DNA of 23,182 nt. It comes from a virus. The DNA is taken from positions 1-23,182 of the IMG/VR virus record IMGVR_UViG_3300013233_000216. One strand, given 5' to 3'. The notes beneath the pieces were generated by a model, which was not told where the DNA came from, searched no databases, and worked only from the letters and a program-made list of their open reading frames with translations. This document shows positions 1 through 14,373 of the stretch, one piece after another (position 1 is the first letter of the stretch; each line of letters begins with the position of its first letter). Both the position numbers and the translations under genes were made by a program.

Positions 1-951
1 TTAAGTCAAGCCAAGTTATTACTTCTAATAAAGTCATATCATTTTTCTATTAGATTACCGGTATTCCGCGATATATTAGCTAAAAAAGCACATGCAGACA
101 CAGACAATGCGTATGAATTATTTAAGCGATATAAGGAACTTGATATTCATTTAAGTAATAACCACAGAGCCACAGGCGAAACATTAGAATACCTAACGTT
201 GCGATACGGTAAGGAGATAGCCGTCGCTAAGCGAGAAGTAAAGTCAGCAAGAGTAACAGGTGACAAGAACCCAGGATATCAGCACAACGGTACAATGTCT
301 CCATTTTCGGATAATTTTAGCAAATATGTTAATAATACAGCCCAGCATACTAAGGACGAAGTAATTGCTAAGCGGAAGGAAACAATGAAAAATAATCCAG
401 CATCAAACAATACAAACATAGAATTCTATAAAGCTAAAGGTTTATCGGATACTGAAGCAGCTATAGCATTAAAAGAGCGCCAAGTATCTAATGGATTAGA
501 ATGGTATGAAAATAAATATGGAAAAGTTAAAGGATTAGAAAAATACAATAGACGTATGAAAAAGTGGATGACATCATTTAAAAAATGTAATTTTTCTAAG
601 ATCTCACAAGAATTATTTAACGGAATAGTAAAGGATTACGATACAACAAACGTGTATTATGCTACACACGACCGCGATAATATGGATGGGTATGTTAATA
701 AAGAGTATGTATTACGCCTAACAAAATCATATTGCCGCCCAGATTTCATCGATGTTGATACTAAGAAAGTGATTGAATTTGATGGTGATTATTGGCACCA
801 TGGTCCACAAGTGAATAAAGACCGAGATATGTTACGTGACAAAGCAATCATAGAGCAAGGGTATACTATATTGCATGTACGTGAGCGAGAATTTAATAAA
901 AACAAAACAAAGGTAATCAAAGAGTGTTTAGAATTTTTACAATTAAGCTAA
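1..951 (+). CDS. Vsr-like (EDxHD/PD-(D/E)XK-type) homing endonuclease, 5' end outside window
   Basis: The frame is open from base 1, so the gene starts left of the window; a TTG at 199 could start a 250-aa protein but has no good Shine-Dalgarno. The nuclease core is at the C-terminus: RPDFIDVD (about residues 180-187 counted from the TTG), then VIEFDGDYWHH (about 191-201), then a helix and ILHVRERE. This order, acidic residue followed by EFDG-YWH, is that of Vsr-like homing endonucleases such as the I-Bth0305I family. The middle has a G-S-EA...RQ segment seen in phage homing endonucleases, probably a DNA-binding module. It lies directly before the C-terminal half of a split intein inside terminase, the site where such free-standing endonucleases sit in fractured phage genes. 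Its likely role is to cut intein-less terminase genes and spread the insertion. Family is confident; target is inference. Confidence 0.75.
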   Translation, partial: LSQAKLLLLIKSYHFSIRLPVFRDILAKKAHADTDNAYELFKRYKELDIHLSNNHRATGETLEYLTLRYGKEIAVAKREVKSARVTGDKNPGYQHNGTMSPFSDNFSKYVNNTAQHTKDEVIAKRKETMKNNPASNNTNIEFYKAKGLSDTEAAIALKERQVSNGLEWYENKYGKVKGLEKYNRRMKKWMTSFKKCNFSKISQELFNGIVKDYDTTNVYYATHDRDNMDGYVNKEYVLRLTKSYCRPDFIDVDTKKVIEFDGDYWHHGPQVNKDRDMLRDKAIIEQGYTILHVREREFNKNKTKVIKECLEFLQLS

Positions 952-1070
952 TACAACTATTACACCTGTGGGACGGAATGGATAATCACGAAGTGTTAAT
1001 TAATAACGCAATTGATGGCATTATAGATAATAACTACACTAAGGTATTCGATGAACTATATTGCGATTAA
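948..1070 (+). pseudogene. Out-of-frame C-terminal remnant of a second homing endonuclease
   Basis: In a frame different from the upstream endonuclease, this stretch reads LLHLWDGMDNHEVLINNAID and continues to VFDELYCD and a TAA at 1068-1070. It closely resembles the end of the intact endonuclease at 6574-7464 (LIHLWDGIGDHMQIIETAIT ... VYNQLYG). No catalytic core precedes it in frame, so it is probably what is left of an earlier endonuclease, replaced by the present one. It overlaps the first 20 bases of the terminase/intein reading frame that starts at 1051. Confidence 0.55.
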
Positions 1071-2781
1071 ACTAATAAAGCTAATACTCTGGCTACTTGA
1101 TAAAAATCATCGCTCTGATGATAATATTGCTTCGGATAACACTAAAAAGTTCACTCACATGAAACCGGTTAGCTTCCGGTCTGATTTTGCTTTTGCTACC
1201 CACGTATTTAGAACTGTACCGTACGCCGCATGGCAGATAAAAACAAAAAACACAGAATTAACCGGCGCAGATAAACATCTAATTAAAACGCCTGGTGGAC
1301 TAAAATGGATCCAGGACTTAAATGTCGGCGATTTGATTTGTACTAAATTTGGCGACGAGGTGCTTACTGTAGTTCGTGATCTGAATATAAAAGTACACAT
1401 GTATGATCTTGAAATTGCATCAGCTGACCACTTATATTATAGCAATGATATCTTATCACACAACACTACTACAGCATGCGGATACTTATTATGGTATGCT
1501 ATGTTTATACCCGACTCAACAATTCTAATAGCAGCCCACAAATATAGTGGCGTACAAGAGATCATGCAGCGTATACGATATGCTTATGAATTATGTCCAA
1601 ACCACATTAGGGCAGGTGTCACCTCGTATAACAAAGGTAGTATAGAATTCGACAATGGGAGTAGATTAGTAGCCCAAGCAACAACAGAAAACACCGGACG
1701 AGGAATGTCCATAACATTGTTATATTTAGATGAGTTTGCGTTCGTTCGACCAACAATAGCGAAAGAGTTCTGGACATCAATATCGCCAACATTAAGTACA
1801 GGTGGTAAAGCAATCATAACAAGTACGCCAAACTCAGATGAAGATCAATTTGCGTTATTATGGAAAGGCGCCAATAAAACAGAAGATGAGTTCGGAAACA
1901 CACGCGAAGATGGTTTAGGACAAAATGGTTTTAAAGCTTATGAATGTAATTGGAAACGTCATCCAGATAGAGATCAAGAATGGGCAGACGAAGAATTAGG
2001 GCGTATAGGCGAAGAGCGATTCAGACGTGAGCATTTAAATGAATTTGTCATCAATGATGAAACATTAATAAAGCCAACAATGTTAATAGATATGGAAGGT
2101 AAAGAGCCATTGAATAAAACAGGGCAAGTACGCTGGTACGCCGAGCCAAGAAAAGGCTGTATATACACAGTAGCATTAGATCCTAGTTTAGGAACAGGTG
2201 GCGACCCAGCTGCTATACAAGTATTTGAAGCCAATACTACTAATCAAATAGCCGAGTGGAAACATAATAAAACTACTTGTCCAGTGCAAATTCGTATTAT
2301 GGTAGATATCATAAAGTATATATTTGAAAAAATAGATGATCAAAATAGCATATATTTTAGTTTAGAAAATAACACATTAGGCGAAGCCGCATTAATATCA
2401 CTAGAAGAATACGGTGAAGAAAACATACCAGGTATTATGTTAAGTCAGCCAAAAGTGCCAGGAAACTCACGTCGATACCGCAAAGGATTTAATACAACAA
2501 ATAAGACTAAGCTAGCAGCGTGTGCAAAAATGAAGCATCTAATAGAAGCACAGAAGATGACAATCAACAGTAAAAGTCTCATAAGTGAACTTAAGAATTT
2601 TGTAGCAATAGGCGCCAGTTATGCTGCTAAGCCCGGCGAGCATGATGATTTAGTAATGGCTACAGTGTTAACAGTGCGTATGTTACAAATGCTCAAAGAT
2701 TATCACCAAGAATTAACATCAAATTTAAGAGATTACAGTGACGAAACTATAGCGCCAATGCCCTTTGTTGCAATGTTCTAA
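1051..2781 (+). CDS. 17: Split-intein C-terminal half fused to the C-terminal part of large terminase (gp17)
   Basis: Residues 1-138 end in LYYSNDILSHN, the block F/G signature of an intein C-terminus; splicing would occur at Asn138, before Thr139. Upstream are an intein block B-like region (TELTGADKHLI, 68-78) and GLKWIQDLNVGDLI, so the intein half is long, about 100-138 aa. From Thr139 the sequence is terminase: TTTACGYLLW completes a Walker A whose GK must come from another polypeptide. Then come Walker B LLYLDEFAF (about 224-232), coupling motif TSTPN, and the RNase H-like nuclease residues DPSLGTGGD, LENN and HDDLVMA. The motor packages DNA into proheads by ATP hydrolysis and headful cutting. 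No N-terminal half exists in the window, so function requires protein trans-splicing. The long IntC resembles the atypical AceL-TerL class. ATG 1051 has AAGG six bases upstream; the ATG at 1159 is an alternative start. Confidence 0.88.
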   Translation: MNYIAIKLIKLILWLLDKNHRSDDNIASDNTKKFTHMKPVSFRSDFAFATHVFRTVPYAAWQIKTKNTELTGADKHLIKTPGGLKWIQDLNVGDLICTKFGDEVLTVVRDLNIKVHMYDLEIASADHLYYSNDILSHNTTTACGYLLWYAMFIPDSTILIAAHKYSGVQEIMQRIRYAYELCPNHIRAGVTSYNKGSIEFDNGSRLVAQATTENTGRGMSITLLYLDEFAFVRPTIAKEFWTSISPTLSTGGKAIITSTPNSDEDQFALLWKGANKTEDEFGNTREDGLGQNGFKAYECNWKRHPDRDQEWADEELGRIGEERFRREHLNEFVINDETLIKPTMLIDMEGKEPLNKTGQVRWYAEPRKGCIYTVALDPSLGTGGDPAAIQVFEANTTNQIAEWKHNKTTCPVQIRIMVDIIKYIFEKIDDQNSIYFSLENNTLGEAALISLEEYGEENIPGIMLSQPKVPGNSRRYRKGFNTTNKTKLAACAKMKHLIEAQKMTINSKSLISELKNFVAIGASYAAKPGEHDDLVMATVLTVRMLQMLKDYHQELTSNLRDYSDETIAPMPFVAMF

Positions 2782-2805: not shown

Positions 2806-5247
2806 ATGGAAAAACAAGTATCTAAGAAAATATTCGACATTTTAGTATCAAAAGATTTTAATGTAGAAACATTCACATCAACAGGTAAAGCAGTAACAGA
2901 CCTAGCAGAAGTAGAAATGTTTAGCTTTAATTTTGAAAATAACGGCACTGATATGGGGAATGTAATCATCCTCCTGAACGCAGATAAAGAGTTAGTATTA
3001 TTCAGCACTGACGCCGAAGATAAGCAAGCAGATGCCGCTGACAAAGGTGCGTGGCAACGCTTCTTAAAGCACATGCGCATGATAGCTAAGCGTAATATGT
3101 TAGGATTTAAAGTACAAAACATAAATCAAGTAAAGTACGCAATGCAATCAATGGCCAGTGCGAAAATCAACGAAGCATATCACGGTTCTACAAAAACAAG
3201 CTATAACAATAAAAAAGGCAAAACACGCATAATCATCAAGCACAATAAAAAAATAGGTGAAGATGATAAGCGATACAGACATATTAATTCAATCTTCATT
3301 GAAAACGCAGCAGGCGAACGTTTTAAGTTACCATTCACAAAACTACCAGGTGCCAGAGCAATGGCCCGCCACGTAGAAGAAGGTGGAACACCGTATGATG
3401 ATTTTGGCAGTCACATTACAGAAATGGTAGAAGACATTGGCACATTAAGTGGTTTTGTAAGACGTAGCAAAATGTTTGAAGATGACGCCGACACACAAGC
3501 GATCGCACAAACAGGCAGAAATCACTATCAATCATTACGCAAAGGATTAAGTCAGATAGCAGGTAAGCGAGGATATCACACGTTCAAAGAAAATTGGACT
3601 CCTGCAGCGCATATAGAAGAATCGGATGATGACGTATCAAATTTGCGTGGGAAATTCACGAAAAAATCAATTAATCAGAAAGTAGACAATGCGTTACCAT
3701 TGTTAGCAAGATTACAGAAGCAACTAACAAAGGAAAGCACAATGAAAGAATTATCAGAATTTGAAGAATGGGCTAACAACATCATCGGCGAAGAAATAGT
3801 AACGGAATTAGATATGCGCACAGTCAAGGGCACAAAGCAGGTGGAAGATTTTAAAGGATATGAAATACATGTTCGCCCGTTAAGAGCTAAACAACCTGGC
3901 CTTAGCAATGTTGGCCAGCAAAAACAAATGAATAAAGTATTTATTGCGTTTGCATATGATACCGCTACAAGAAAAGAAGTTAAAGAGTTTAAAGCAAAAG
4001 GTTCTACTCGCAATGGCGCAGTAGCAGCCCTACAAGAGATTATATCAGCAGCAGATGACAAAAATCACAGTGCAGAGAATATAACTAGTCAATCTACCAT
4101 TGATTTTAATGTTATGTTTACTACACATTTATTAAAAGGTGAAGAAGAAATTTGGACTAAAATAATTGATGGGCCAACTTTAGTAATAGCAGGCGATGAA
4201 ATATTAGCTCTAGACGATACGTCATATTTAAAGCAAGATGGATTTAGCAGAAGTGGAATCAGAAATCCAAAAGCCGGTGAAGGTGCTGCCAAATTATTAG
4301 GATCACCACTTAAGGCAAATGCCCAATCTACTGTTAAAAAACACGGTAGATATTTAATCGGAGATGAAACCAGTGATAATGATGGAAACAGAGTATTTCC
4401 ACTATCATTGCATAGCACCGTTCGATCCAAGGAAGAAAAGTACACACTAAATAAACCATCGTTAACTATTGGCACCACCGACAATAAAAAAACAGAATCA
4501 ATCGAAGAAGGCAGCTGGGCAATGCCAGACAGCGAAGATAAAATAGCAGCACTAAGCGACTTCATGTCAGTGGAACAGCCAGTAGGAGTAGACGCAGAAA
4601 ACGCTACTAGCGCATTATACGATATAGTAGGCGATGATAGTTTATTCGACGCATTGCAGGAATTAGCAGAAAATGATCCAGAGGCCGATGCTAGAATAGT
4701 ATTACATAGCTGGATAGAAGATAGATACAACGCTCGTGATGGTTTTACAGATCAATCTGATATTAACGTAGCAGAACAGATGTACCACGCAGTACAATCA
4801 TTTGACCCATTTGCTACGCAGCAAACAGAAAGCACAGAGGGTGAATTACAAGACCGAGGAGGTTACGAAACAATGGAACCAATGAAATGGATGAAGAACA
4901 AGAAAAAACAGTCGCCAAAGATACAAGAAAGTAGCCAGGGTATTAGCGCATTATCACCTAAGCTAGCACACGCTATTCTTAATGACCAAATTGATCTATA
5001 TGATACGTTACAAGGTCCGAGTGAGTTTGTATCTACAAATGATTATGAGATTATACAAACAGCATATAACGAAGCATCAATTGATTATGGTTTGCATGCT
5101 GATGACGACCACGAAGAAATACTAGATAAGATATTTAATGAAATATATGATATTTTCGAAGATGCTAATAATTTTGAAGAATCTATTAGAGAATCAAGTG
5201 ACTTAACAGATTTAATTAAACGCACGAAATATTTATTACAAAGTTAA
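2806..5247 (+). CDS. Large protein of unknown function (813 aa), possible virion or internal-head protein
   Basis: I do not recognise a named family. The protein is hydrophilic with no signal peptide or membrane segment. Residues about 1-110 form a mixed alpha/beta region. Around 190-270 is a well-ordered stretch (RFKLPFTKLPGARAMARHV, then FVRRSKMFEDDADTQAIAQ) that looks like a conserved domain of marine T4-like phages. The middle (about 450-560) is rich in charged and small residues, and the last 130 residues are very acidic and helical. It starts 24 bases after terminase with AAGGT upstream of the ATG, and a strong terminator follows at 5273. Its place next to terminase and a possible late box suggest a structural or packaged protein, but this is inference. 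T4 itself has the tail sheath gene after gene 17; this is not a tail sheath by sequence. Confidence 0.6.
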   Translation: MEKQVSKKIFDILVSKDFNVETFTSTGKAVTDLAEVEMFSFNFENNGTDMGNVIILLNADKELVLFSTDAEDKQADAADKGAWQRFLKHMRMIAKRNMLGFKVQNINQVKYAMQSMASAKINEAYHGSTKTSYNNKKGKTRIIIKHNKKIGEDDKRYRHINSIFIENAAGERFKLPFTKLPGARAMARHVEEGGTPYDDFGSHITEMVEDIGTLSGFVRRSKMFEDDADTQAIAQTGRNHYQSLRKGLSQIAGKRGYHTFKENWTPAAHIEESDDDVSNLRGKFTKKSINQKVDNALPLLARLQKQLTKESTMKELSEFEEWANNIIGEEIVTELDMRTVKGTKQVEDFKGYEIHVRPLRAKQPGLSNVGQQKQMNKVFIAFAYDTATRKEVKEFKAKGSTRNGAVAALQEIISAADDKNHSAENITSQSTIDFNVMFTTHLLKGEEEIWTKIIDGPTLVIAGDEILALDDTSYLKQDGFSRSGIRNPKAGEGAAKLLGSPLKANAQSTVKKHGRYLIGDETSDNDGNRVFPLSLHSTVRSKEEKYTLNKPSLTIGTTDNKKTESIEEGSWAMPDSEDKIAALSDFMSVEQPVGVDAENATSALYDIVGDDSLFDALQELAENDPEADARIVLHSWIEDRYNARDGFTDQSDINVAEQMYHAVQSFDPFATQQTESTEGELQDRGGYETMEPMKWMKNKKKQSPKIQESSQGISALSPKLAHAILNDQIDLYDTLQGPSEFVSTNDYEIIQTAYNEASIDYGLHADDDHEEILDKIFNEIYDIFEDANNFEESIRESSDLTDLIKRTKYLLQS

Positions 5248-5492: not shown

Positions 5493-6563
5493 ATGGCCTC
5501 ATTAGCAGATATTCGTGCGCGTTTAGCCGCACAAGATAACAAATCAAACAAAACTTACACACCAGGCGAATCAGCAGTATACCCACATTGGAGCATCGAA
5601 GAAGGAAGCACAGCAATTATTCGCTTCTTAGAAGACGCCGACGCATCAAATCCATATTTTTGGACAGAACGACAAGTATTCAAATTCCCATTCAATGGCA
5701 TTAAAGCTAACGCAGCACTAGGAATCGAAGGTTCATCAAAAGAAACCATTGTGCAAATTCCATGTATGGAAATGTATGATGAAAAAGACACAGTACTAGA
5801 CGAAGTACGCACATGGTTCAAAGATCCAACAATGGAAGATATGGGTCGCAAATACTGGAAAAAGCGTTCATATTTGTTCCAAGGTTTTGTACGCAGTGAC
5901 CCAATGGAAGATGGCACCAAGCCTGAGAACCCTATTAGACGTTTTGTAATTTCCCCTCAAATCTTTACATTAATTAAAAACTCTTTAATGGATCCGGATA
6001 TCGAGAACTTACCAACAGATGCGTTAGGTGGTTTAGACTTCCGCATTAATAAAACAAAGAAGGGTGAATATTCAGATTATTCAACCTCAAGTTGGGCTCG
6101 CAAGGAAACAGCATTAACTGAAGAAGAAGGCGAAGCTATTGAGAAACACGGCTTGTTTAATTTAAGTGATTTCTTACCTGCCAAACCTTCCGAGGAAGCA
6201 CAGAAAGTAATTATGGAAATGTTCGAGGCGTCGATCGACGGTGAGGCATATGATGCCGAACGTTGGGGAGCATACTACACACCATACGGCGTTAGCAAAA
6301 CAGATACCAAAGCACGCGACATTCCGTTTGCTACTAAAGCACCTGTAGAAACAGCAATAGCGGCGCCTGCGACATCAGACATTCCTGCACCAGTAGCAGT
6401 AGCCGGTGGAGCAGAATCAATGGAAGCAGCAGTGGAAACAGCAGAAGCAGCAATAATCGAAGAACCTGTAGCAGAAGCAGCAGTAGTTAAAGATGAAGCA
6501 TCGGCTACTTCCGGGGATAAAGCGCAAGACATTCTTGCTATGATCCGTTCACGTCAAAAGTAA
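5493..6563 (+). CDS. 32: Single-strand DNA-binding protein gp32
   Basis: Coats single-stranded DNA in replication, recombination and repair and recruits UvsX, UvsY and replication proteins. The order follows T4 gp32: a basic N-terminal region (MASLADIRARLAAQ), an OB-fold core with KYWKKRSYLFQGFV (about 120-133), FVISPQIFTLIKNSL and LDFRINKTKKGEYSDYSTSSW (about 180-200), and an acidic, alanine-rich C-terminal tail (about 280-345). At 356 aa it is longer than T4 gp32 (301 aa), mostly in the tail. T4 gp32 binds zinc through one His and three Cys; here that region has only Cys91 and no nearby His, so the zinc site appears lost. ATG 5493 has AGGAGA eight bases upstream. Confidence 0.9.
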   Translation: MASLADIRARLAAQDNKSNKTYTPGESAVYPHWSIEEGSTAIIRFLEDADASNPYFWTERQVFKFPFNGIKANAALGIEGSSKETIVQIPCMEMYDEKDTVLDEVRTWFKDPTMEDMGRKYWKKRSYLFQGFVRSDPMEDGTKPENPIRRFVISPQIFTLIKNSLMDPDIENLPTDALGGLDFRINKTKKGEYSDYSTSSWARKETALTEEEGEAIEKHGLFNLSDFLPAKPSEEAQKVIMEMFEASIDGEAYDAERWGAYYTPYGVSKTDTKARDIPFATKAPVETAIAAPATSDIPAPVAVAGGAESMEAAVETAEAAIIEEPVAEAAVVKDEASATSGDKAQDILAMIRSRQK

Positions 6564-6572
6564 GATTAGCTC

Positions 6573-6666
6573 AGTGGAGTTAGTGCGAAAAGAGATATTA
6601 GATTTCCCACGTATATTTAATGCACGTGGGAAACTCAATAGTTATTTATTTCGCACTAACTCCACT
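6573..6666. repeat. Nested perfect inverted repeats (18 bp outer, 10 bp inner)
   Basis: Outer arms AGTGGAGTTAGTGCGAAA (6573-6590) and its exact reverse complement (6649-6666). Inner arms TTTCCCACGT (6603-6612) and ACGTGGGAAA (6624-6633) with an 11-nt loop. The whole forms a 94-nt two-tier hairpin that covers the start and first 31 codons of the endonuclease gene right after gp32. Confidence 0.9.
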
Positions 6667-7464
6667 TTCATGCGGTCGGACTTAGTAGATAAGATTAACT
6701 TATCTACTGTATTCTTAAAGGACGCAAACATAATAGAGCGTATATATTATATTTTAAATAATATAACATCGCCGGTTAAATGTCTAAGCTGCACAAGCAC
6801 AGTTAAGTTTATTAATCTATCAGTCGGACATCACTTATATTGTTCAACGCAATGCGTAAATGAATCAACAGCAGTTAAAGAGAAGCGTAATAATACATGT
6901 GCCGCTCGTTACGGGGTAGATAATTATTCGCAAACTCATATCTCGCACGAATCGTTAAGCAAATTATCCGATGAAGAATGGTTAATTGATCAGCATCACA
7001 TTAAGCGACGATCAGCAAGTGACATAGCAATCGATTTAGGCGTAGACAGTACTACAGTACTAAGTAAGATGAAGAAAATGAATATCGCCGTTCATCGGTA
7101 TGCTAATTCAAAGCCCGAAGGGGTATTATTAGAATCTATTGCTAGTGCGTACGATACTAGAATATTGCAGAATGTAAGATCGATTATACCACCACGTGAG
7201 ATTGATATCTACTTACCAGAGTTTCATCTAGCTATAGAGTTTAATGGCACGTATTGGCACAGGCCAGAAAAGTTTGGTGGATACAACGGGTGGATAGAGT
7301 ATCATCAAAGCAAAATAGATTTATGTGCTAAAAAAGGCATTAACTTGATACACTTATGGGACGGAATTGGTGATCATATGCAAATAATAGAAACAGCAAT
7401 AACCGAACCAGTTGACAATAAGTTAGCTAGTGTGTATAATCAATTATATGGACTAAAATGTTAA
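6574..7464 (+). CDS. Vsr-like homing endonuclease with zinc finger and helix-turn-helix
   Basis: Free-standing homing endonuclease between gp32 and uvsX. In order: a cysteine cluster (C70-x2-C73 and C90-x3-C94) that probably binds zinc; KEKRNNTCAARYGVDNYSQ (about 102-120), typical of this phage family; a helix-turn-helix (RSASDIAIDLGVDSTTVLSK, about 146-165); and the nuclease core with REIDIYLP (208-215), IEFNGTYWHR (221-230), KIDLCAKKGINLIHLWDG. It is probably intact. The GTG start at 6574 has no clear ribosome binding site and lies in the outer arm of a long hairpin; ATG 6670, just after the hairpin, is an in-frame alternative. T4 homing endonuclease genes are known to be held back by RNA hairpins over their start. 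Its last codons contain a perfect promoter (7412-7440), and it overlaps the next gene by 7 bases. Confidence 0.82.
   Translation: MELVRKEILDFPRIFNARGKLNSYLFRTNSTFMRSDLVDKINLSTVFLKDANIIERIYYILNNITSPVKCLSCTSTVKFINLSVGHHLYCSTQCVNESTAVKEKRNNTCAARYGVDNYSQTHISHESLSKLSDEEWLIDQHHIKRRSASDIAIDLGVDSTTVLSKMKKMNIAVHRYANSKPEGVLLESIASAYDTRILQNVRSIIPPREIDIYLPEFHLAIEFNGTYWHRPEKFGGYNGWIEYHQSKIDLCAKKGINLIHLWDGIGDHMQIIETAITEPVDNKLASVYNQLYGLKC
7390..7449 (+). repeat. 60-bp direct repeat, copy 1 (carries a promoter)
   Basis: Matches 8228-8287 at 57 of 60 positions without gaps, 838 bases apart. This copy encodes the last codons of the homing endonuclease (ETAITEPVDNKLASVYNQLY). Confidence 0.92.
7412..7440 (+). 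promoter_or_regulatory. Consensus sigma70 promoter inside the endonuclease tail
   Basis: TTGACA (7412-7417), 17-base spacer, TATAAT (7435-7440): a perfect match to both hexamers with ideal spacing. It would start transcription near 7447, ten or so bases before the ATG of the 7458 gene. Confidence 0.8.
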
Positions 7465-11114: not shown

Positions 11115-11868
11115 TCCATTACAATTCGGATCCGAAGCAGATAGTCACGCTCACTCGCTATCGATTTTAAATTTATTACGAGAGTACGACGATTTCATGA
11201 TGTCAATTGACAGTGTAGCAGACATGGGATGCGGCACTGGCAAAGACTTAGAATGGTGGGCAACGCAAACCACACGCGACGATAATCCAGAGCCTCTGAA
11301 CATAAATTGTGTAGGGTACGATACACTGGATAAATTATTAGTAGAAGATCGCCACGATAATATATTGTATTCGCAGCGCGACTTTGAAACTGAAGTAACT
11401 GGCACGCAATACGATATCATTTGGAGTCACGACAGTTTTCAGTATGCTATAAATCCGTTACAAACGCTAGCACAGTGGAATAAAATGTTAACCCCCGGCG
11501 GAATGTTAATGTTGTCAGTGCCACAGTCTACTAACGTAGTATTTAACAAGCAAGAATATAATCAAGTTGACGGAACATATTTTAATTATACATTAGTAAG
11601 TTTAATTCACATGTTAGCAATCTCCGGGTTTAATTGCGATATTGGTTTCTTTCAAAAAAACGCCAATGACCCATGGATTAATTGTGTAGTATATAAAAGT
11701 GAACACGAGCCAATGGATCCACGCACAACACGGTGGTACGATCTAGTAGATAAAGAATTATTACCTAAAACAGCAGTAGACAGCATTAATGCTTGCGGAC
11801 ATTTGCGCCAACAGCATTTGGTACTACCGTGGTTAGATAAGAGTAATACAGATTTTGGACAACAGTAA
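11104..11868 (+). CDS. Class I SAM-dependent methyltransferase
   Basis: 254 aa. Motif I is VADMGCGTGKDLEWW (about 38-52), the AdoMet-binding glycine loop; an acidic residue follows in GYDTLDKL; YDIIWSHDSFQYAINP (about 104-119) is the motif IV region; and LTPGGMLMLSVPQ (about 133-145) matches the methyltransferase type 11 core. No DNA-methylase catalytic motif (NPPY/DPPY) is present, so a small-molecule, sugar or protein substrate is likelier than DNA. Its partner gene downstream joins a nucleotidyltransferase to a sugar isomerase-type cupin, which suggests carbohydrate modification. The start could be 11104 or the next codon ATG at 11107. Confidence 0.85.
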   Translation: MMNNPLQFGSEADSHAHSLSILNLLREYDDFMMSIDSVADMGCGTGKDLEWWATQTTRDDNPEPLNINCVGYDTLDKLLVEDRHDNILYSQRDFETEVTGTQYDIIWSHDSFQYAINPLQTLAQWNKMLTPGGMLMLSVPQSTNVVFNKQEYNQVDGTYFNYTLVSLIHMLAISGFNCDIGFFQKNANDPWINCVVYKSEHEPMDPRTTRWYDLVDKELLPKTAVDSINACGHLRQQHLVLPWLDKSNTDFGQQ

Positions 11869-11890
11869 ATTTAGCAGATTATTTAACACT

Positions 11891-12682
11891 ATGGTCAAAC
11901 GTGTAAATTTATGTTCCGGGGGATACGACCCAATTCACAGCGGGCATATTAATTTAATAAACGGTATGTCCACTGGTTTAACAAGCGACATCTCTGTAGT
12001 AGCAGTAAATTCTGACAAGTGGCTACAAAGAAAAAAAGGCAATAACTTCCTCACTATCAATGAGCGGATAACAATAGTAGCTAATCTAAAAAGTGTACAC
12101 AGCGCAATAGAATTCAATGACGACGACGATTCAGCGTGCGATGCGATACAGCAATGTTTAGACAAATACCCCTCGGCAGCAATACACTTTCACAACGGAG
12201 GAGATCGTAATAGTGCAAATATATTAGAAACATTAAAATTTGCAGGCAATAGCAGGGTACATTTCATTTACGGCACCGGTGGGAACAACAAAGCAAATTC
12301 CTCAAGCGATATCCTGACACGATGGGCAACCATATCAAACACAACGCAACGACAGTGGGGCAATTACACAGTACTAGATAATATGCCCGGGGTAAAAGTC
12401 AAAAAAATGATAGTAACGCCAGGAAAATCATTATCAATGCAGCAGCACGAACACCGCAGCGAGCATTGGTTTGTAGCATCCGGCAGCGGCTATGCCGAAG
12501 CACAGTATACAACAGAATCAGCAATAACACGCATACAGCTAGTCAAAGATGATTTATTAACAATATCTAAACAGTGCTGGCATAAATTAGTAAATGATTC
12601 GCACGATGACTTAGTAATAGTAGAAATTCAGCATGGATTAACGTGCAAAGAATCCGATATAACACGTAAACCAGATAAATAA
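11891..12682 (+). CDS. Cytidylyltransferase-like / mannose-6-phosphate isomerase-type cupin fusion
   Basis: Two domains. The N-terminal one is a nucleotidyltransferase of the RfaE/TagD kind: VNLCSGGYDPIHSGHINL with the HxGH motif (residues 16-19), VNSDKWLQRKKG, and SSSDILTRW as the second ATP-binding motif. From about residue 155 a cupin follows, with PGKSLSMQQHEHRSEHWFV (about 177-195), the metal-binding signature of type II phosphomannose isomerases. Together they could activate and bind or isomerise a sugar phosphate, for LPS or capsule modification or for decorating phage parts. A TTG at 11855 in the same frame would add 12 residues; I prefer the ATG at 11891 because such enzymes start right before this strand. 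Overlap or close spacing with the methyltransferase suggests joint action. Confidence 0.78.
   Translation: MVKRVNLCSGGYDPIHSGHINLINGMSTGLTSDISVVAVNSDKWLQRKKGNNFLTINERITIVANLKSVHSAIEFNDDDDSACDAIQQCLDKYPSAAIHFHNGGDRNSANILETLKFAGNSRVHFIYGTGGNNKANSSSDILTRWATISNTTQRQWGNYTVLDNMPGVKVKKMIVTPGKSLSMQQHEHRSEHWFVASGSGYAEAQYTTESAITRIQLVKDDLLTISKQCWHKLVNDSHDDLVIVEIQHGLTCKESDITRKPDK
12674..12681 (+). promoter_or_regulatory. Late-type promoter box GATAAATA
   Basis: Seven of eight matches to the T4 late box TATAAATA, 31 bases before the ATG of a virion-type gene, overlapping the preceding stop codon. A leader with AGGAG follows, as expected for a late gene. Confidence 0.4.
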
Positions 12683-13375: not shown

Positions 13376-13397
13376 ATAAGATTTAGTCTTATTAACT

Positions 13398-13425
13398 AAA
13401 AATACCTCTTAATTGGGGTATTTTT
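13398..13425 (+). terminator. Intrinsic terminator after the structural gene
   Basis: Stem AAAATACCTC (13399-13408) pairs with GGGGTATTTT (13415-13424) with one T-G pair; loop TTAATT; flanking A/T adds an eleventh pair and the 3' side is T-rich. It closes the transcription unit before the RNA cluster. Confidence 0.85.
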
Positions 13426-13448
13426 GTGACTAAAATGTCAAATAAAGG

Positions 13449-13476
13449 TAGACATTTAGGATAAATGCTGTATAAT
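13449..13476 (+). promoter_or_regulatory. Sigma70-type promoter of the RNA cluster
   Basis: TAGACA (13449-13454), 16-base spacer, TATAAT (13471-13476). Start expected near 13483. An inverted repeat AAATGTC (13433-13439) / GACATTT (13451-13457) overlaps the -35 box and could be a regulator site. Confidence 0.65.
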
Positions 13477-13508
13477 GTAATATAACAGTTAGGAAACGAC
13501 GCTGTTAA

Positions 13509-13627
13509 GACAATAGCTGCTCCGGATGAGCGATAGCATAGTTAGAGTTCGATTCTCTTATAAGTACTGGATGTACGCTTTACCTCGTAACGAGGCACAG
13601 GTTGGTTCAACTCCAACGCTATTGTCA
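13509..13627 (+). ncRNA. tRNA-like element 1 (expanded)
   Basis: A perfect 9-bp closing helix GACAATAGC/GCTATTGTC abuts a canonical T arm (GTTGG-TTCAACT-CCAAC). A CCTCG-TAA-CGAGG hairpin before it resembles a type II variable arm. A GCTC-CGGAT-GAGC hairpin sits where the D arm should be, and there is a further hairpin AGAG-TTCGATT-CTCT. The total of about 118 nt is 25-40 nt too long for a tRNA. CTGGATG could be a seven-base anticodon loop with GGA (Ser), but its stem is weak. No CCA is encoded. It could be a domain of a larger RNA instead. Confidence 0.35.
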
Positions 13628-13885
13628 CTAGGAAAAAGGGGCAGGTGGTTCAGAGAGCCAAACTATGTCACTCTGGGTAGCATTGATAAAGTGTCCGGCC
13701 TAATTTAAACTGTACCCCGGATGGTTCCTAGGGGAATAATACAAGGGTTATAAAGCCTAGCTAAGCTAGTGCCTATAGCGTAACAGCAGTCCCGATGGAG
13801 CCACCAAATTTGAGAGATAATACGAGGGACTAATACCCACACGTGATTTCTTAAAGAGTAACGGGATTGATACATGTTAGGATCC

Positions 13886-13994
13886 TGTGTAATAGTATAA
13901 CGGCAATACGCTATCTGAGAGAATGTTAATTGTGGCTTAATTACCCACAAGGCAGTATCAAGGATGGAAATGGGGTTCAACTCCTCTTACACAC
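13886..13994 (+). tRNA. tRNA-like element 2, apparently interrupted in the anticodon arm
   Basis: The 5' third is a textbook tRNA: acceptor TGTGTAA, TA, D stem GTAT/ATAC with loop AACGGCA. The 3' end has a T arm (GGGG-TTCAACT-CCTC, one G-T pair, only four pairs) abutting TTACACA, the exact acceptor complement. Between them CTATC (13911-13915) can pair with GATGG, leaving a 47-nt loop instead of 7 that contains a TTGTGG/CCACAA hairpin. No CCA is encoded and the anticodon cannot be read. It may be a tRNA with an insertion, a decayed gene, or part of a larger RNA. Confidence 0.45.
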
Positions 13995-14130
13995 TCGACT
14001 AAATTGTAGTTTAATGATATCTACCTGATACAAAAATCATTATGGGATGATTTAACGTTTGAGATTTTTATTTCAAGCATTAACTAGTTAGTGATCACCA
14101 TGCGACTAGTAAAATAAAGCGGTGGTCAAT

Positions 14131-14203
14131 GCAAGGTTAGATTAATGGTAAATCATCGGGTTCCCCCTGAAAATGTAGGTTCGATTCCTGCACCTTTGCT
14201 CCA
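14131..14203 (+). tRNA. tRNA-Gly (UCC anticodon)
   Basis: Acceptor GCAAGGT pairs with ACCTTTGC with one bulged T; TA; D stem GATT/AATC with loop AATGGTA; an anticodon arm whose loop GTTCCCC puts TCC at 34-36; T arm GTAGG-TTCGATT-CCTGC; discriminator T and encoded CCA. The T73 discriminator, which is usual for bacterial tRNA-Gly, agrees with the anticodon. The variable region is short (three bases) and the anticodon stem has one mismatch, so it is somewhat divergent. Confidence 0.75.
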
Positions 14204-14209
14204 AATTAA

Positions 14210-14313
14210 CGACCGGCTGGAAATTAACATTAGCCAATAAGGCGCAAGATATATGGATTGATCACCGGAAATATTGCGCCCAGCGTGTGGTTCAAATCCG
14301 CACCGGTCGACCA
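14210..14313 (+). tRNA. tRNA-like element 3 with encoded CCA, expanded middle
   Basis: Acceptor CGACCGG pairs perfectly with CCGGTCG, followed by discriminator A and CCA; the T arm TGTGG-TTCAAAT-CCGCA is canonical and directly abuts it. A five-base variable region (CAGCG) precedes it, and GGCGC/GCGCC forms a stem at the anticodon-arm place but with a 30-nt loop rather than 7. The D region (14219-14235) lacks the usual GG in its loop. Length is 104 nt with CCA, about 28 above normal. Ends look like a processed tRNA; the decoding part cannot be assigned. Confidence 0.5.
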
Positions 14314-14373
14314 AATAAAAGGTTGACAGTCCTTCAAAACTGTCGTATAATATGTACTTAATTAATAAGCCAA
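14313..14373 (+). repeat. 61-bp promoter repeat, copy 1
   Basis: Matches 14602-14662 at 57 of 61 positions without gaps. It holds TTGACA (14323-14328), a 17-base spacer and TATAAT (14346-14351), a perfect sigma70 promoter. GACAG (14325-14329) and CTGTC (14340-14344) form an inverted repeat between the two boxes, a typical place for an operator. It lies just after the CCA of tRNA-like element 3. Confidence 0.88.

What the first reader, a model, noticed from the sequence alone, without database searches (positions are those of the whole stretch)
1051..2781. Large terminase completed only by protein trans-splicing at the Walker A lysine-threonine bond
The frame starts with an intein C-terminus (LYYSNDILSHN) and continues as terminase at TTTACGYLLW, so the split falls inside the ATPase P-loop (GK/T) and the catalytic Thr is the first extein residue. 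No N-terminal half is in frame or nearby. The IntC part is long and holds a block B-like segment, which fits the atypical AceL-TerL kind of split intein (short IntN, long IntC) rather than the usual kind. A motor gene that is inactive until two polypeptides are joined is a notable control point for packaging. A Thr at +1 is also worth testing for splicing efficiency.
Basis: partly seen in the sequence, partly recalled or inferred. Interest (0 to 1): 0.85.

Follow-up and report, generated by a model that had tools for sequence, protein, structure and literature searches.

The report
Phage packaging motor joined by split intein
This phage makes its DNA-packaging motor as two separate proteins that must be joined, through the middle of the ATP-binding loop, by a self-splicing split intein; such splits are already known, but relatives suggest how they arise and show a severed helical clasp not found described before.

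Summary
ORF 1051-2781 is the C-terminal half of an atypically split intein fused to the C-terminal 438 residues of a T4-type large terminase. The junction (SHN|TTTA) falls between Lys and Thr of the Walker A loop. The window is a contig that begins inside a Vsr-like homing endonuclease (1-951), so the missing half lies off its edge. A sister contig (L082, 98% identical over the 343-base overlap) supplies it: terminase residues 1-86 ending SRQTGK, then a Cys-starting IntN of 49 residues, then the start of the same endonuclease. Joined in silico, the exteins give a 524-residue terminase collinear with intein-less relatives. This is a 'fractured gene' with an S2-split (AceL/GOS-TerL-like) intein, and such splits prove common in viral contigs (about 40 distinct forms). 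Two features look new. First, in one subclass both halves carry a hydrophobic helical extension at the cut. Second, in contiguous relatives the same endonuclease sits out of frame exactly at the S2 site with both frames kept open, which suggests how atypical splits arise. The proposed control of packaging has no support; a selfish-element reading suffices. Splicing itself is untested.

The parts
1..951 (+). Vsr/DUF559 (EDxHD)-like homing endonuclease ORF, cut at its 5' end by the contig edge; lies between the two terminase halves
   Evidence: Open 5' ORF; DUF559 3e-7, MTES_1575 2.8e-7; homologous to endonucleases at the same place in L021, L063, L089; full start in sister contig L082
1041..1044 (+). 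AAGG Shine-Dalgarno-like sequence before ATG 1051
   Evidence: Read directly from sequence
1051..1140 (+). IntC head: about 30-residue hydrophobic helical extension (MNYIAIKLIKLILWLLDKNHR...)
   Evidence: Conserved in L002, L088, L089, L092/Atu_ph07; predicted helix 2-16, pLDDT about 80; heads of related split inteins match a segment of contiguous intein L192
1141..1464 (+). IntC Hint part of the split intein; block B His76 at 1276-1278, block F Asp119 at 1405-1407, His137-Asn138 at 1459-1464
1462..1467 (+). Splice junction Asn138 | Thr+1 (Thr of the Walker A motif)
   Evidence: Empty sites in relatives; in-silico joined product
1465..2781 (+). Terminase large subunit, C-terminal 438 residues (rest of ATPase domain and RNase H-like nuclease)
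   Evidence: Walker B LYLDE, TSTP, nuclease ALDPS, ENN, HDDLV present

Best explanation
A 'fractured' terminase gene. The large terminase is made as two polypeptides: N extein (86 aa, to SRQTGK) + IntN, and IntC + C extein (438 aa). IntN and IntC associate, rebuild a Hint fold and splice in trans (class 1: Cys1, block B His, terminal His-Asn, Thr+1), restoring the GK|TT P-loop. A Vsr/EDxHD-like homing endonuclease gene lies between the halves and would spread the element into intein-less terminase genes. Both halves carry a hydrophobic helical extension at the split point, which most likely acts as a clasp that brings the halves together. Shown by sequence: both halves (the N half in a sister contig), junction, intein motifs, endonuclease, empty sites, collinear product, paired extensions. 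Inferred: splicing, homing, the clasp.
For: IntC and terminase parts. Sister contig L082 overlaps window 1-343 at 98% and carries terminase N half + IntN CCAYNTTVINNNTHTQIGELLWNEMTLKQKAVTKLENWLVNLAKSDEQN* followed by the same endonuclease. Independent relative L002 has both halves on one contig. L088, L089 and cultured Agrobacterium phage Atu_ph07 likewise. Empty sites in more than 60 relatives. Joined exteins: 524 aa against 522 aa for L003, 78.8% identity, 2 gaps, Walker A restored. C extein against L003: mismatches by codon position 75/43/221, i.e. purifying selection. No group I or II intron. Head and tail co-occur: tail present in 12 of 12 split inteins with a head against 4 of 18 without (Fisher 2e-5).
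Against: The window's own N half was never seen; it is inferred from a 98% sister over 343 bases. No splicing experiment exists for this intein. The IntC head is hydrophobic but not significantly amphipathic. The N-half model is low confidence and no complex could be predicted. The hydrophobicity cut-offs for head and tail were set after seeing the sequences (Fisher P 2e-5 to 6e-4 over three tail cut-offs). Head/tail co-occurrence is partly due to common descent: the tree places heads in at least two clades, but with weak deep branches.
Confidence: 0.9

Rival explanations
1. RNA-level splicing: the gap is a group I or II intron holding an endonuclease, as in the split terL genes of Jug phages and ICP1.
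For: Phage terL genes are split by introns elsewhere (papers PMC12363816, PMC10448857).
Against: No Rfam intron in the window or seven related loci; the segment before TTTA is an intein by motif, profile and fold; the N half ends in an intein N-terminus.
Confidence: 0.03
2. A decayed, non-functional terminase or an assembly artefact.
For: The contig ends inside the element, where assemblies often break.
Against: The same arrangement with intact frames occurs in independent contigs and in a finished cultured phage genome; catalytic motifs intact and third-position-biased divergence.
Confidence: 0.04
3. The split is kept as a regulatory switch on DNA packaging.
For: The essential P-loop bond is made only after splicing; in some phages the halves are far apart in the genome (SCTP-2 about 173 kb, LR756501 about 12.5 kb).
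Against: Most close relatives have an uninterrupted gene; contiguous inteins occupy the same site; an endonuclease between the halves in 17 of 27 loci with both halves held points to a mobile element.
Confidence: 0.07
4. The two halves work as a non-covalent complex without splicing.
For: Some split phage enzymes work as two peptides (general knowledge; a split ribonucleotide reductase is mentioned in PMC10448857).
Against: All splice residues are conserved (Cys/Ser1, block B His, mostly His-Asn, Thr/Ser+1), which a non-splicing complex would not need.
Confidence: 0.02

Closest known systems
Atypically split (S2) terminase inteins AceL TerL and GOS TerL, and the engineered consensus intein Cat (PDB 6dsl)
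   Same: Same kind of host gene (TerL), short IntN and long IntC holding block B, split after the first helix (S2, per PMC13014065).
   Different: IntN is 49 residues with a conserved helical tail, and IntC has a helical head of about 30 residues; CatC aligns only from about residue 25 or 49. Thr at +1; GOS TerL is Ser1/Cys+1 (PMC10189870).
Fractured genes with Vsr/EDxHD homing endonucleases (Dassa et al. 2009, not held; known through citing papers)
   Same: Essential phage gene broken into two ORFs by a split intein with a Vsr-like endonuclease between; compare AceL NrdHF with a GIY-YIG endonuclease (PMC7891396).
   Different: In contiguous relatives here the endonuclease is nested out of frame at the atypical S2 site rather than being a domain at the usual insertion site.
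Contiguous terminase inteins of Ackermannviridae (Vibrio VP-1, Kuja, Escherichia AV101)
   Same: Same insertion bond GK|TT, Cys1, SHN|T.
   Different: One polypeptide, no endonuclease between the intein parts, no helical arms.
ShiLan element: out-of-frame HNH endonuclease in a phage methylase (PMC11855218)
   Same: An endonuclease hidden in another frame of an ORF that stays open.
   Different: ShiLan has no splicing domain; L021, L063 and L149 hide a Vsr-like endonuclease inside a true intein.

Membership tests
Atypically (S2) split class 1 intein | Split after the first helix: short IntN, IntC holds blocks B, F and G | tested here: met
   Sister IntN core of about 25 aa ends after the GELLW helix; block B ADKH, F MYDLEI and G SHN are in IntC
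Atypically (S2) split class 1 intein | Cys or Ser at position 1; His-Asn end; Cys/Ser/Thr at +1 | tested here: met
   Cys1 in L082 and L002; SHN|T in the window
Atypically (S2) split class 1 intein | IntN of 15-37 residues (range given in PMC13014065; a range of known cases, not a strict definition) | tested here: not met
   49 residues in all; the core fits, the helical tail exceeds the range. Counted as a variation in length, not as grounds for exclusion
Atypically (S2) split class 1 intein | Hint fold | tested here: met
   AF2 model of IntC, pLDDT 70; top PDB matches all inteins or Hint domains, VidaL E 2.8e-5
Atypically (S2) split class 1 intein | Trans-splicing activity | not testable with these tools
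   Needs expression of both halves
Fractured gene with Vsr/EDxHD endonuclease | Two ORFs of one essential gene, each ending or starting in a split-intein half, with an endonuclease gene between | tested here: met
   L082 plus window, overlapping at 98% over 343 bases
Fractured gene with Vsr/EDxHD endonuclease | Endonuclease belongs to the Vsr/EDxHD family | tested here: inconclusive
   DUF559/MTES_1575 significant, Vsr only 0.038; EFDGDYWHH motif and homologues at the same site; no match to a solved member
Class 3 intein | No Cys1, Cys at C2:4, WCT triplet | tested here: not met
   Window has Asp at C2:4 and its sister has Cys1
T4-type large terminase | Walker A/B and RNase H-like nuclease acidic residues after joining | tested here: met
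   GKTT, LYLDE, TSTP, ALDPS, ENN, HDDLV in the joined product

The most novel reading that the evidence does not exclude
The window belongs to a subclass of split inteins whose halves are held together by the two severed arms of a helical hairpin. The atypical S2 split in phage terminases arose when a Vsr-like endonuclease gene inserted out of frame at that site in a contiguous intein, stayed hidden with both frames open, and later lost the intein frame. Contiguous, hidden-endonuclease, deleted-endonuclease, split-with-endonuclease and split-without forms all survive today.
Probability: 0.5. Interest if true: 0.75.

Novelty: new variant of a known kind. Interest (0 to 1): 0.6.

Why it matters
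It ties a single odd ORF to a widespread arrangement in large phages, makes the origin of atypically split inteins testable (the proposed intermediate states can be read in public contigs), and offers natural split inteins with possible built-in docking helices, plus Ser1/Thr+1 forms (Atu_ph07, L089), for protein ligation. PMC13014065 (2026) names PolB16 as the only known natural cysteine-less atypically split intein.

Tried and rejected
Group I/II intron reading: no Rfam match. N half within the window's own contig: none. Class 3 intein: rejected on motifs. Matching IntN or the endonuclease to solved structures: nothing useful. Amphipathicity test: the IntN tail is borderline (P 0.04 on the averaged profile), the IntC head not significant (P 0.18), so the clasp rests on conservation and co-occurrence. 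A first version of the head/tail count cut the tail too short and was redone. Sequence match of tails to the first arm of L192 is not above shuffles, while heads match strongly. The raw count of 54 split forms includes truncated loci and other insertion sites; after removing these about 40 remain. The Dassa 2009 paper is not held and the Thiel 2014 paper was not read; what is said of them comes from citing papers.

Full report
What is there. The window is a 23,182-base viral record. Its first ORF (1-951, open at the left edge) is an endonuclease with DUF559/MTES_1575 similarity. ORF 1051-2781 follows, with AAGG just before its ATG. Its residues 139-576 are T4-type large terminase. Its residues 1-138 match intein structures by sequence, and the AF2 model (pLDDT 70) has inteins as its best PDB matches, VidaL first. 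The junction is SHN|TTTACGYLLW. In intein-less relatives the same place reads SRQTGK|TTTACGYL or PRQTGK|STSAAGYL, so the break lies between Lys and Thr of Walker A.

The missing half. The window contig simply begins inside the element. A scan with a 29-base string from the left edge found one other contig, L082, which overlaps window bases 1-343 with 7 mismatches and no gaps and continues leftward. It encodes terminase residues 1-86 ending SRQTGK, then IntN CCAYNTTVINNNTHTQIGELLWNEMTLKQKAVTKLENWLVNLAKSDEQN and a stop. The endonuclease most likely starts five bases later (ATGGAAAAAG), although its frame is open further up. The relative L002 has both halves on one contig and no endonuclease. L082 and L002 also share similar sequence in the gene upstream of the terminase (seen by eye). 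N extein of L082 plus C extein of the window make 524 residues that align end to end with the 522-residue intein-less terminase of L003 (78.8% identity, 2 gaps), with all catalytic motifs present. The sister is not proven to be the same virus; that is the main gap in the chain.

How common. Atypically split inteins at this bond also occur in L088 (4-base overlap of the two ORFs), in L089-L091 (in L089 and L090 the N half was found, about 3.1 kb upstream, with the endonuclease and other ORFs between), and in the cultured Agrobacterium phage Atu_ph07, whose two CDS are 11 bases apart as annotated. The main text of the Atu_ph07 paper holds no mention of an intein or a split. They also occur in Salicola phage SCTP-2 (halves about 173 kb apart in the record), Vibrio phage vB_VmeM-32, and a 735-kb uncultured phage (about 12.5 kb apart). 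A broader scan gave about 40 distinct split forms and 15 contiguous ones; an endonuclease of this family lies between the halves in 17 of 27 loci where both are held (remnants and one in-frame fusion counted). Contiguous inteins at the same bond are present in Ackermannviridae.

The helical arms. In the window's clade the IntN ends in a conserved hydrophobic tail (LxLREKxVxxLExLLLxLxR) and the IntC begins with a conserved hydrophobic head (..KAxLWLLDKDHR..), outside the Hint fold. Where both halves are known, all 12 forms with a head have a tail, against 4 of 18 without a head (Fisher 2e-5). Heads occur in at least two supported clades of the intein tree. Contiguous inteins inside one of these clades, L192 and L211, carry two hydrophobic segments joined in one chain. 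The head of split relatives aligns with the second arm of L192 far above shuffles, but the tail does not align with the first arm above shuffles. The best reading is a helical hairpin cut at its tip that now helps the halves find each other. This is inference; no complex could be modelled.

Where the split may come from. In contiguous inteins L021, L063 and L149 a full endonuclease ORF of 279-304 residues lies in another frame, from intein residue 25-27 to about 113 residues before the end, which is the S2 split point. The intein frame stays free of stops across it although 15 to 18 are expected from synonymous shuffles (minimum 5 to 8 in 5000); endonuclease genes that do not overlap an intein frame show 43 and 51 stops in the same offset. 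L021 and L063 keep both frames open at 62% identity in the endonuclease frame. L022 is the same locus with a clean 687-base in-frame deletion that destroys the endonuclease and leaves a 192-residue contiguous mini-intein. Read together, these look like the steps from contiguous to fractured gene; the direction of change is inferred, since the tree is poorly resolved at depth. No report of an out-of-frame endonuclease inside an intein turned up in the held library; the nearest is ShiLan, which has no splicing domain.

Thr at +1. Every intein counted at this bond has Thr (52) or Ser (12) at +1, as the P-loop requires. Thr+1 is accepted by the CL intein at about a third of its rate (PMC13014065). 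Two split members have Ser1 with Thr+1 (Atu_ph07; L089 and its near-copies). They lack the His of motif NX described for such inteins in PMC10189870 (Thr stands there, by my reading of the alignment), so their activity is an open question.

Verdict. The kind is known; the window is a new member of a variant subclass. The regulatory claim is unsupported.

Noticed in passing
L021:3747-6566 with 4090-4929; L063:3717-6590 with 4114-4953; L149:3199-5418 with 3533-4447; partial in L150: Contiguous terminase inteins with a Vsr-like endonuclease hidden in another frame; the intein frame has no stops where 15-18 are expected.
   Followed up: yes
L022:4434-6566: Same locus as L021 with a precise 687-base in-frame deletion of the hidden endonuclease, leaving a 192-aa mini-intein.
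   Followed up: yes
L083/L092 (Atu_ph07) and L089-L091: Natural atypically split inteins with Ser1 and Thr+1; Atu_ph07 also has Cys at C2:4 and both lack the motif NX His.
   Followed up: partly
L110/L113 (Salicola phage SCTP-2), L112/L114 (Vibrio phage vB_VmeM-32), L107/L115 (LR756501): Terminase halves far apart in the genome record (about 173 kb, tens of kb, about 12.5 kb); SCTP-2 and VmeM-32 have a second intein near Walker B. LR756501 IntC ends NLN|T instead of SHN|T.
   Followed up: partly
L002:1806-2603; L104:1060-1740 (minus); L117 (minus strand, 390 aa): Terminase ATPase-like paralogues in three phages with a split terminase; P-loop intact in L002 (SRQMGKT) but degenerate in L104 (RRMGTTS) and L117 (SRQMGIT).
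   Followed up: partly
L111:1790-4075 (Vibrio phage Va1) and L134: Endonuclease that appears fused in frame ahead of the IntC-terminase ORF.
   Followed up: no
window 6574-7464: A second, free-standing homing endonuclease (PHROG 3339, 1.7e-30) next to an apparently intact gene 5493-6563.
   Followed up: partly
window 11855-12682: Cytidylyltransferase-like domain fused to a mannose-6-phosphate isomerase-type cupin domain, beside a methyltransferase ORF.
   Followed up: no
window 13376-14351: ORF-poor stretch with one tRNA-Gly (tcc) at 14131-14203.
   Followed up: no
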